A DNA stretch of 64,000 nt, taken from NCBI GenBank assembly GCA_021325195.1, contig JAJPHQ010000032.1, positions 29,119 to 93,118 on the forward strand, written 5' to 3'. Both the position numbers and the translations under genes were made by a program. The notes under the pieces were generated by a model, which did not search any database, was not told the origin of the DNA, and saw only the letters and a program-made list of their open reading frames with translations. Shown here in pieces: positions 35,757-47,561 of this stretch (the first letter of the stretch is position 1; the number at the start of each line of letters is the position of its first letter). This DNA is from Gammaproteobacteria bacterium (lineage in GTDB: Bacteria; Pseudomonadota; Gammaproteobacteria; Xanthomonadales; Rhodanobacteraceae).

Positions 35757-37058
35757 TCACGCCACGGCACGTGCGCCCGGCAAGCGGGGAAATTCGTCAC
35801 GCAATGCCCGCAGCAGCAGCAGTCCCGGCAGCGCGCAGGCGAGCGCAATGCAGAAATACAGGGGCCAGCCCAGCGCCTGCGCCACGATCCCGGCAAGGGG
35901 ACCCAGCGCGATCCGCGCCACCGCGTCCAGCGCGCTGAACAAGGCGTACTGCGTGGCGCTGAAACGCCTGTCGCACATCGCCATCAGCAGGGCCACGAAC
36001 ACCCCGGTGCCGAGTCCCGAGGTCAGGTTCTCGCCCGCCACCGCCGTGATCAGCGCCGGCAGCCCGTGCCAGCCCAGCGCCACGGCGAGAAAGCCCAGCG
36101 CGCCCAGTCCCTGCAGCACGCCGAACACCCACAGCGCGCGTCTCAGCGGCCAGCGTTCCAGCAGAAAACCCCCGGCGAACGCCCCCACGATCGTGGCCGC
36201 GAGCCCGAACACCTTGTTGACCCAGCCCACTTCCGCGAGCCCGAAGTGTGCGCCGCGCAGCAGAAAGGTGGTGGAAAGCGACAGGGCGAACGCGTTGCCC
36301 AGCTTGTACAGCAGCACCAGCGCCAGCCACGTCCAGGCGCGCGGGCGATCGAGGATCTCGCGCAGGGGGCCGGCGAAGGCGCGCAACAGCGTCGGCGGCG
36401 GGGCGGCCCGTTCGCGCTCCGGCGCGAACAGCGTGGCGACCACGCCGATGCCCATCAGCGCGGCCATCAGGAGATACGTCGCACGCCAGCCGGCGTGGGC
36501 GGCGAACACCAGCGCAAGACCGCCCGACACCAGCATCGCCGCACGATAACCGCCCACGCCCAGCGCCGCGCCGAGGCCGCGATCCTGTGGCAGCAACTGG
36601 TCGGTGCGGTAGGCGTCGATCGCGGTGTCCTGCGTGGCCGACAGGAACACCAGCAGGGCCGCCAGCAGCGCAATGCCGCCCAGCGAGGTCTGCGGCGAGA
36701 GGCCGGCGATACCGACCAGCACCGCGGCGATCGCCAGTTGCATCGCCAGCGTCCAGCCACGGCGGCGCCCCAGCCACGGCAGCGCGTAGCGGTCCAGCAG
36801 CGGTGCCCACAGGACTTTCAACACGTAGGCAAAACCGACCAGCTTCAGAATGCCGATGGTTTCCAGGCTCAGCCCCGACACCGCGCACCAGGCTTCCAGC
36901 GTGCTGCCGGAAAGCGCCAGCGGCAGTCCCGAGGAGAAACCGAGCAGGGTGACGGCGACCAGCACGCGCGTGCGGTGCGGCGCGGCCACCTCCGCTACCG
37001 CCGCAGCGTCGTGCGGCGTCGGTTCACTCAACGTCGTACTCCACCGCGTATGGCGCAT
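35757..37058 (-). CDS. ampG: AmpG-like muropeptide MFS transporter
   Basis: LLGFSSGLPLALSGSTLEAW; GILKLVGFAYVLKVLWAPLLDR; SATQDTAIDAYRTDQL; next to anmK. Start uncertain (possible TTG at 37031). Confidence 0.9.
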   Translation of the reverse strand: MRHTRWSTTLSEPTPHDAAAVAEVAAPHRTRVLVAVTLLGFSSGLPLALSGSTLEAWCAVSGLSLETIGILKLVGFAYVLKVLWAPLLDRYALPWLGRRRGWTLAMQLAIAAVLVGIAGLSPQTSLGGIALLAALLVFLSATQDTAIDAYRTDQLLPQDRGLGAALGVGGYRAAMLVSGGLALVFAAHAGWRATYLLMAALMGIGVVATLFAPERERAAPPPTLLRAFAGPLREILDRPRAWTWLALVLLYKLGNAFALSLSTTFLLRGAHFGLAEVGWVNKVFGLAATIVGAFAGGFLLERWPLRRALWVFGVLQGLGALGFLAVALGWHGLPALITAVAGENLTSGLGTGVFVALLMAMCDRRFSATQYALFSALDAVARIALGPLAGIVAQALGWPLYFCIALACALPGLLLLRALRDEFPRLPGARAVA

Positions 37059-37827
37059 GGTCGGAGAAGCGGGGCGCCGGCGTGATCCGGCAGGATTTCA
37101 GGCGCTCGCGCAGCGATGGCGTCACGATCTGGTAATCGATCCGCTACCCGACGTTGTTGGCGCGCGCGTTGCCGCGGTTGGACCACCAGGTGTATTCCTC
37201 GGCCTCGGGTTTCAGCACCCGAAAGCTGTCCAGCCAGCCGTGCTTCGGCGCGGGCGTGCCGTCGCCGTGCGGGTCGGCGATCAGCGCGTTCAGCCATGCG
37301 CGCTCTTCCGGAAGGCATCCGGAATTCTTCTGGTTGGATTTCCAGTTCCTGATGTCGCGTTCACTGCGCACGATGTTCCAGTCACCGCACAGCACGAAGT
37401 CGCGGCCGCTGGCCAGCCACTTGTCGAAAACCGCACGCAGTTTCTTCATCGCCTCGAACTTGAACTGCTGGCGCTCCTGGCCCGAGGTGCCCGAGGGCAC
37501 GTACAGCGACACCACGGACAGATTCCCGAAACGCGCCTCGATGTAGCGGCCCTCGTCGTCGAACGGCTTCCAGCCGATTTCCGTCAGCACCTCGTCCGGT
37601 TCGCGTCTGGCGTAGATCGCGACGCCGCTGTAGCCCTTTCTGGTGACCGCGTCGCGATAGAAGCAATGGTGGCCGTCCGGGCGGAACCTCGGATCGGTCA
37701 ATTGCCCTTCCTGCGCCTTGGTTTCCTGCAGGCACACCACGTCGGCGTTCTGCTTGCGCAGCCAGTCGAAGAACCCCTTGCTCGCTGCCGAGCGGATGCC
37801 GTTGGCGTTGAAGGTGATGATTTTCAC
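37024..37827 (-). pseudogene. xthA: Exodeoxyribonuclease III family protein interrupted by an in-frame TAG
   Basis: MKIITFNANGIRSAASKGFFDWLRKQNADVVCLQETKAQ ... RGNARANNVG[TAG 37146-37144]RIDYQIVTPSLRERLKSCRITPAPRFSDHAPYAVEYDVE*; GTG start at 37827. Confidence 0.9.
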
Positions 37828-37983
37828 GGGACTCGGGACTCGGGATTCGGGACTCGACAGAGCGTAAAGCAAAAACCTCGGGGCCATCGAACCGCATCGG
37901 GCCGCTTCATTTTCGCGACCGTTGCTGTCGAAAGCCGGCGGGCACTTTATCATCCGGGTCCCGAGTCCCGAGCCCCGAGTCCC
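37828..37983. repeat. Inverted heptanucleotide arrays between divergent xthA and pyrE
   Basis: Left arm (GGGACTC)x4 at 37828-37855; right arm GGGTCCC/GAGTCCC/GAGCCCC/GAGTCCC at 37956-37983. Confidence 0.9.
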
Positions 37984-37984
37984 G

Positions 37985-38638
37985 ATGCTCCCCCACCAAC
38001 GCGCTTTTCTCGATCTCGCGCTTGCGCGCGGCGTGCTCCGCTTCGGCGATTTCACCCTGAAATCCGGACGCCGGAGTCCGTATTTCTTCAACATGGGCAG
38101 GATCGATTCCGGCGCGGCGCTGGCGGAGGTCGGCAAGGCTTATGCCGCGGCCGCGCAGGCCAGCGACATCGCCTTCGACATGCTGTTCGGGCCGGCCTAC
38201 AAGGGCATTCCGCTGGCCGCGGCGGCCGCGATCGCGCTGGCGCGCGAGCACGGCCGGGACGTGCCGTGGGCGTACAACCGCAAGGAGGCCAAGGACCACG
38301 GCGAGGGCGGCCAGTTGATCGGCGCGCCGCCCGCGGGGCGCGTGCTGATCGTCGATGACGTGATCACCGCCGGCACCGCGGTGCGTGAATCGCTGGGCAT
38401 GATCCGCGGCGCGGGCGCCGGGGTGGCCGGCGTGCTGGTGGCGCTGGACCGTCAGGAACGCGGACAAGGCGAACTCTCGGCCACGCAGGAACTCGCGCGC
38501 GAGCAGGGTGTGCCGGTGATCGCGATCGTGGGGCTGGACGACCTGCTGGCCTATGCCGCCGATCACCCGGAACTGGCCGCGCAACGTGAACGGCTTCACG
38601 CTTACCGGGCTGAGTGGGGTGCCGCGTCCCGGGCGTGA
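37985..38638 (+). CDS. pyrE: Orotate phosphoribosyltransferase
   Basis: [57 protein letters not shown]. Confidence 0.97.
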
Positions 38639-42814: not shown

Positions 42815-42823
42815 ATTCACTCC

Positions 42824-42923
42824 GGGAGACGGGAGAGGGGAGACGGGAGACGGGAGACGGGAGATGGGAGCAGGCGTGCTGCACGGCAACGCTCTTTCGC
42901 TTCCCGTTTTCCGTCTCCCGTCT
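42824..42923. repeat. Inverted heptanucleotide element in the atpD-atpC spacer
   Basis: Left arm GGGAGAC-type heptamers, ~6.7 copies (42824-42870); right arm TTCCCGTTTTCCGTCTCCCGTCT (42901-42923). Confidence 0.88.
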
Positions 42924-45799: not shown

Positions 45800-45885
45800 G
45801 TGAGCGGTCAGCGGTGAGCCGTGAGCGGAAAGAGCAGCAACGTGCAGCTCTTCGCTTTTGCCGCTCACCGCTCACATTTCACCGC

Positions 45886-45890
<5 letters not shown>
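45800..45890. repeat. Inverted heptanucleotide element in the atpA-atpG spacer
   Basis: GTGAGCG GTCAGCG GTGAGCC GTGAGCG (45800-45827), spacer, CGCTCAC CGCTCAC ATTTCAC CGCTCAC (45862-45889). Confidence 0.92.
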
Positions 45891-47494: not shown

Positions 47495-47561
47495 AGACGG
47501 GAGAGGGGAGATGGGAGACGGACAGCGGTCCCGCGTTTTTCGTCTCCCGTCTCCCGTCTCA
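47495..47561. repeat. Inverted heptanucleotide element in the atpH-atpA spacer
   Basis: AGACGGG AGAGGGG AGATGGG AGACGGA (47495-47522), spacer, CGTCTCC CGTCTCC CGTCTCA (47541-47561). Confidence 0.9.

What the first reader, a model, noticed from the sequence alone, without database searches (positions are those of the whole stretch)
37828..37984. Heptanucleotide arrays directly abut both start codons of the divergent xthA and pyrE genes
Four GGGACTC-type heptamers end at the xthA GTG, and four inverted GAGTCCC-type heptamers end one base before the pyrE ATG. Both starts read ...GAGTCCCG(A)TG, with arrays occupying the Shine-Dalgarno position and no recognisable GGAGG. The two arms could pair in RNA or DNA (spacer ~100 nt). 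Copy changes are not multiples of 3 and would shift start spacing or upstream frames, so the array could tune or phase-vary translation.
Basis: partly seen in the sequence, partly recalled or inferred. Interest (0 to 1): 0.66.

Follow-up and report, generated by a model that had tools for sequence, protein, structure and literature searches.

The report
Matched heptamer arrays bracketing divergent promoters
The gap between two divergently transcribed bacterial genes is flanked, right up to both start codons, by two mirror-image arrays of a 7-base repeat; in related species the repeat has a different sequence but the two arrays still match each other, so the two DNA ends appear to copy one another over evolution.

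Summary
Four GGGACTC-type units (37828-37855) abut the xthA GTG, and four GAGTCCC-type units (37956-37983) end one base before the pyrE ATG. Such arrays are already known from Xanthomonas (Rehm 2015; convergent pairs, pyrE named as repeat-associated). New here: at the orthologous xthA-pyrE gap the unit differs between species (GGGACTC, GGGAATC, GTGAGCG, GGGGGCT, GGGAGCA, GAGGGCT, GGGAGAC and others), yet both arms nearly always carry the same unit (27 species, observed 768 against permuted 430 +/- 31, 0 of 20,000). The core between the arms is homologous, and in one congener it is inverted. Because the genes diverge, no expected mRNA holds both arms, so matching must arise at DNA level. Best reading: slippage plus inverted-repeat template switching keeps the arms alike, possibly helped by family-wide absence of SbcD. 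The arrays fill the predicted 5' leaders and have displaced the Shine-Dalgarno (0 of 19 array species have one, against 72% of array-less relatives for xthA). Phase variation is not supported: no frame is affected and the genes are housekeeping. A G-quadruplex is not the conserved property, since GTGAGCG, CGTGATT and GTCGAAA arrays behave alike. Function remains inferred.

The parts
37828..37855 (+). Left arm: four GGGACTC-type heptamers, G-rich on the + strand; C-rich in the predicted xthA mRNA leader
37956..37983 (-). Right arm: four GAGTCCC-type heptamers on the + strand (inverted copy); C-rich in the predicted pyrE mRNA leader
37856..37955 (.). Core between the arms, holding both putative promoters; homologous among congeners, inverted in congener G067
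37948..37953 (+). Putative pyrE -10 box TATCAT, 2 nt before the right arm; recurs in congeners. Read by eye: the consensus scan found no full promoter
37861..37866 (-). Putative xthA -10 box TACGCT (minus strand), 5 nt from the left arm; recurs in congeners. Read by eye
37028..37827 (-). xthA, exodeoxyribonuclease III, GTG start; in-frame TAG at 37146-37144
37985..38638 (+). pyrE, orotate phosphoribosyltransferase, ATG start
42823..42870 (+). Second locus of the same kind, between atpD and atpC: (CGGGAGA)x6.9; inverted partner CCCGTTTTCCGTCTCCCGTCT at about 42903-42923
45800..45890 (.). Third locus, atpA-atpG: GTGAGCG units / CGCTCAC units; the right arm overlaps the atpA stop codon (45886-45888)
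47495..47560 (.). Fourth locus, atpH-atpA: GGGAGAC units / GTCTCCC units

Best explanation
The two arrays are the arms of one DNA inverted repeat that undergoes concerted evolution. Slippage creates and changes period-7 arrays in the unconstrained DNA between each -10 box and start codon. Arm-to-arm copying, by fold-back or interstrand template switching at the replication fork (quasipalindrome correction) or annealing between the arms, then spreads the unit of one arm to the other and occasionally flips the core. Loss of the hairpin nuclease SbcCD across the family may permit this. The arrays thereby become the whole 5' leader of both genes and replace the Shine-Dalgarno, so both genes would be translated without one. 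Shown: arrays, arm concordance, unit switching around a homologous core, one core inversion, loss of SD, polarity, absence of SbcD. Inferred: the copying mechanism, the role of SbcCD, the transcript starts, and any effect on expression.
For: Orthologous xthA-pyrE gaps in 27 species: own-species arm match 768 against permuted 430 +/- 31 (0 of 20,000), with no selection by arm score; within the own genus 397 against 253 +/- 26 and within genus g26 262 against 135 +/- 26, both 0 of 20,000. An independent locus, atpA-atpG: 571 against 318 +/- 29, 0 of 20,000. Concordance exceeds a genome-wide unit preference: among loci with strong arms, own-locus 33.9 against other loci of the same genome 16.7, and the loci of this genome with minority units (GGGAGAC twice, GTGAGCG, GGGAACG) have partners resembling their own unit. 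Core homologous between congeners (pairwise scores up to 75, null 99th percentile 21) while arm identity is near the shuffled level (0.47-0.52 against 0.38 +/- 0.16). In G067 the core aligns reversed to eight congeners (reverse 23-32, forward 12-21). An inverted partner lies on the inward side in 17 of 27 strong arrays, on the outward side in 0. Lag-7 periodicity holds in arms without GGG (0.52 against 0.30). SbcD over cut-off in 1 of 30 family genomes, while 13 of 14 control genomes ring; ExoI in 29 of 30. SD: 0 of 19 array species at either gene against 72% (xthA) and 26% (pyrE) of 68 others. Literature: template switching homogenises inverted-repeat arms and inverts spacers (PMC8604942, PMC8794818).
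Against: At the window's own locus the variant units are not shared between the arms (order test gives no signal for G000), and its unit is also the commonest in this genome, so this single locus could be explained by genome-wide preference alone. The spacer of about 100 bp is long for the published short-range template switching. SbcD is also absent from array-less relatives, so its loss cannot be sufficient. The inversion is clear in one species only. Some congeners (G060, G063, G066) have no or degenerate arrays. Selection for DNA pairing would give similar concordance.
Confidence: 0.6

Rival explanations
1. Selected DNA structure: the matched arms are kept by selection because a cruciform or hairpin (or paired G4/i-motif) formed across the divergent promoters regulates or insulates xthA and pyrE.
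For: Fold z = -5.0; G-rich arm 5' in 33 of 34 loci; positions kept across genera and in three families; Rehm 2015 found transcripts starting or ending in such repeats more often than in controls (PMC4692102).
Against: Many relatives have the same gene pair without arrays; functions of neighbouring genes are random (PMC4692102); units that cannot form a three-tier G4 (GTGAGCG, CGTGATT, GTCGAAA) occupy the same positions.
Confidence: 0.2
2. Genome dialect only: each genome has a favoured heptamer (by slippage bias or dispersal between loci), and both arms draw on it independently.
For: GGGACTC dominates this genome; no shared variant pattern between the arms at the window locus.
Against: Within a genome, arms match their own partner far better than other loci (33.9 against 16.7); minority-unit loci match their own partners; inverted orientation with the partner only on one side (17 against 0).
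Confidence: 0.12
3. Phase variation or translation tuning by repeat copy number.
For: Arrays occupy the predicted leader and lack an SD; tandem-repeat loci vary within Xanthomonas species and are used for typing (PMC8002079, PMC6459536, abstracts seen; their unit lengths were not checked).
Against: Arrays are outside the frames; the sequence next to the start does not depend on copy number; housekeeping genes; phase variation judged unlikely in PMC4692102.
Confidence: 0.05
4. Mobile cassette: the whole arm-core-arm unit is an insertion (MITE- or REP-like) carried by a transposase.
For: REP-like hairpins (TGTAGGAGCGGC) occupy the atpA-atpG gap in some congeners.
Against: The core is homologous between congeners with different arms, so the arms were changed without replacing the core.
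Confidence: 0.03

Closest known systems
GGGAATC / GGGNATC G-quadruplex-forming heptamer repeats of Xanthomonas (Rehm et al. 2015, PMC4692102)
   Same: Period 7, GGGANTN unit, about four copies, intergenic, within 50 bp of ORFs on the antisense strand upstream, frequent convergent inverted pairs, pyrE named as repeat-associated.
   Different: Here in another family of the order; units without GGG behave the same; unit identity switches between species with both arms in step; the arms abut both starts of a divergent pair, a context reported as under-represented; a core inversion is seen.
Quasipalindrome correction / template switching between inverted-repeat arms (PMC8604942, PMC8794818, PMC6357072)
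   Same: Arm homogenisation and spacer inversion.
   Different: Arms here are tandem arrays, the spacer is about 100 bp and contains putative promoters, and the pattern recurs across genera; the mechanism itself was not observed.
REP / BIME elements
   Same: Intergenic inverted repeats; REP-like hairpins found at the same atpA-atpG position in congeners.
   Different: Tandem heptamers with no fixed sequence; the arms bracket a locus-specific core.
Constant-period, variable-sequence tandem repeats (Subirana and Messeguer, PMC8161180, Bacillus)
   Same: Repeat length constant while sequence varies.
   Different: Period 7 instead of 20-21 or 52, and inverted pairs.

Membership tests
Xanthomonas-type G-rich heptamer repeats (Rehm 2015) | At least 2 tandem units of GGGANTN type | tested here: met
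   GGGACTC-type x4 and inverted x4
Xanthomonas-type G-rich heptamer repeats (Rehm 2015) | At least one exact GGGAATC heptamer in the array (Rehm's search criterion) | tested here: not met
   the window locus has GGGACTC/GGGATTC only; congener G024 has GGGAATC at the same position. So it is filed as a relative, not as a member in the strict sense
Xanthomonas-type G-rich heptamer repeats (Rehm 2015) | Intergenic, within 50 bp of the ORF, G-rich on the antisense strand upstream | tested here: met
   0 and 1 nt from the two starts
Xanthomonas-type G-rich heptamer repeats (Rehm 2015) | Convergent inverted pairs | tested here: met
   17 of 27 strong arrays have an inward inverted partner, 0 outward
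Xanthomonas-type G-rich heptamer repeats (Rehm 2015) | G-quadruplex formation | not testable with these tools
   Four GGG runs with 4-nt loops on the left arm would allow it; orthologous GTGAGCG arrays cannot form a three-tier G4
Quasipalindrome template-switch locus | Homogenised arms | tested here: met
   768 against 430 +/- 31 across species
Quasipalindrome template-switch locus | Spacer inversion | tested here: met
   G067 core reversed relative to eight congeners; one clear case
Quasipalindrome template-switch locus | Correction demonstrated in replicating cells | not testable with these tools
   needs mutation assays
Phase-variable contingency locus | Repeat number alters a reading frame or promoter-element spacing | tested here: not met
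   arrays lie between the putative -10 and the start, outside both frames
Phase-variable contingency locus | Copy number varies within a species | not tested
   no second strain of this species was available
REP/BIME | Conserved palindromic REP sequence | tested here: not met
   unit differs between loci and species
RNA terminator/attenuator hairpin | Both arms in one transcript, followed by a T run | tested here: inconclusive
   divergent genes; no terminator-like site found; no transcript data

The most novel reading that the evidence does not exclude
A running DNA-level process in this order of bacteria writes matched heptamer arrays of lineage-specific sequence onto both edges of intergenic regions, replaces SD-led leaders of housekeeping genes with C-rich repeat leaders, and inverts the promoter module between the arms often enough to swap the promoters of xthA and pyrE.
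Probability: 0.3. Interest if true: 0.78.

Novelty: new variant of a known kind. Interest (0 to 1): 0.6.

Why it matters
Heptamer arrays of xanthomonads have been known for a decade with no agreed function and have been read as G-quadruplexes. If arm identity rather than unit sequence is what is kept, the quadruplex reading loses force and inverted-repeat template switching gains a natural laboratory: orthologous loci whose two arms switch sequence together. It also gives natural losses of the Shine-Dalgarno at xthA and pyrE, a test bed for SD-independent initiation, and a case where a promoter module has flipped between two housekeeping genes.

Tried and rejected
First pattern for the own-genome search had a wrong gap and gave 0; corrected. 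Two translations used the wrong start base and were redone. RNA pairing between the arms rejected for a divergent pair. G-quadruplex as the common property rejected because arrays without GGG keep period 7 and inverted matching. Mobile cassette rejected because the core stays homologous while the arms change. Loss of ExoI as a cause rejected: present in 29 of 30. Heptamer-order test: overall signal (869 against 769 +/- 19), but the arms were trimmed to their best alignment first, which favours the observed order, and the window locus itself shows none; not used as main evidence. The atpH-atpA locus gives a weaker result (selected loci 999 of 20,000 reach the observed value; all loci 0 of 20,000). 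Possible core inversion in G076 is weak. No consensus promoter was found by the scanner; the -10 boxes are read by eye from conservation.

Full report
What is there. The start codons are well placed: both proteins start in register with their relatives and match TIGR00633 and TIGR00336. Period 7 stands out in this genome: 24 arrays in 421 kb against 0 after shuffling, and GGGAYTCx3 is found 77 times genome-wide (overlapping matches counted) against 0 for the reversed pattern. The window has three more such loci, all in the atp operon and with other units: GGGAGAC at 42823, GTGAGCG at 45800, GGGAGAC at 47495.

What is already known. Rehm et al. 2015 (PMC4692102) described GGGAATC-type heptamer arrays in Xanthomonas, typically four units, intergenic, close to ORFs, often in convergent pairs, able to form G-quadruplexes, with pyrE among the repeat-associated genes. 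They found no role and thought phase variation unlikely. The locus is a relative of that class.

What is new: the arms evolve together. I collected the orthologous gap from the genus, the family and the order. The unit differs between species: GGGACTC (G000, G042), GGGAATC (G024, G068), GTGAGCG (G056, G044), GGGGGCT (G065), GGGGACC (G064, G071), GGGAGCA (G062, G069, G070), GAGGGCT (G026, G058, G072), GGGAGCC (G075), GGGAGAC (G001, Mizugakiibacter L031), and a dimer GGGAATG-GGGAATC (G076). Both arms carry the same unit wherever arrays are well formed; some arms are degenerate. Scoring left arm against the reverse complement of the right arm, without selecting loci by score, gives 768 for own-species pairs against 430 +/- 31 for permuted species, 0 of 20,000; the same holds inside each of two genera and at atpA-atpG (571 against 318 +/- 29). 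Closely related species share arms by descent, which raises the permuted values rather than the observed one. A genome-wide favourite unit does not explain it: among loci with strong arms, arms match their own partner (33.9) better than other loci in the same genome (16.7), and the minority-unit loci of this genome have partners with their own unit. For the window locus alone this argument is weak, because its unit is also the commonest in the genome and its variant bases are not shared between arms.

DNA, not RNA. The genes diverge. If transcription starts near the arrays, the xthA leader and the pyrE leader each carry one array in the same C-rich sense, so no mRNA holds both arms and the two mRNAs are not complementary. 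Matching must then come from DNA: copying between arms, or selection on a DNA structure. The core between the arms is homologous among congeners (scores up to 75, null 99th percentile 21) while arm identity is near the shuffled level. In G067 the core aligns in reverse with eight congeners (23-32 reversed, 12-21 forward): the segment with both putative promoters has flipped. Arm homogenisation and spacer inversion are the two published footprints of template switching between inverted repeats (PMC8604942, PMC8794818). The published cases have short spacers; here it is about 100 bp.

Polarity and period. Of 27 strong arrays in sampled stretches of the genomes, 17 have an inverted partner within 350 bp on the 3' side of the G-rich strand and none on the other side. 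The left arm is richer in G than C in 33 of 34 loci. Period 7 is kept in arms without GGG (0.52 match at lag 7 against 0.30 shuffled), so what is conserved is period and complementarity, not quadruplex potential.

SbcCD. The hairpin nuclease subunit SbcD (TIGR00619) is over cut-off in 1 of 30 family genomes, while 13 of 14 control genomes ring; ExoI is present in 29 of 30. The family may therefore tolerate inverted repeats. Array-less relatives lack it too, so this can be permissive only.

Consequence for expression. Putative -10 boxes recur next to the inner edge of each arm (TATCAT before pyrE at 37948-37953; TACGCT before xthA at 37866-37861), read by eye; the scanner found no full consensus promoter. 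If they are right, each array is the whole 5' leader. In 19 of 19 array species neither gene has an SD (no pairing at or below -3.5 kcal/mol), against 72% with one at xthA and 26% at pyrE in 68 array-less relatives (Mann-Whitney 2e-9 and 4e-6, not corrected for relatedness). The arrays have displaced the SD, which means SD-independent initiation if the starts are right. Phase variation is not supported: no frame changes, the sequence at the start is independent of copy number, and the genes are housekeeping genes.

Verdict. Real, related to a described repeat class, with a new evolutionary behaviour. Most likely mechanism: slippage plus arm-to-arm template copying, with selection for a DNA structure as the main rival.

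Noticed in passing
37144-37146: xthA has an in-frame TAG at codon 228 where congeners with a readable motif have Trp (NNVGWR); it would remove the C-terminal part of exonuclease III. Real pseudogenisation or a sequencing error; no second copy was sought.
   Followed up: partly
45886-45888: The atpA stop codon TGA lies inside a GTGAGCG-type unit of the atpA-atpG array.
   Followed up: no
L107, xthA-pyrE gap: In a betaproteobacterial MAG (RBG_16_58_11) the xthA-pyrE gap is bracketed by another inverted pair, of CACGGATAAACACGGATAAA type, so bracketing is not limited to this order.
   Followed up: no
L244, L250, L259 (atpA-atpG gap): In some congeners the atpA-atpG position holds a REP-like hairpin (TGTAGGAGCGGC...) in place of heptamer arrays.
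   Followed up: no
L272, L276, L280, L282, L285 (atpH-atpA gap): AT-richer degenerate heptamers GTCGAAA/GTCAAAA form the inverted arms in genus g26.
   Followed up: partly
30 genomes of family f1: SbcD appears absent from nearly all genomes tested (over cut-off in 1 of 30), unlike 13 of 14 control genomes.
   Followed up: partly
L162:16076-16130: A 55-base nearly pure G stretch in this assembly, possibly an assembly artefact.
   Followed up: no
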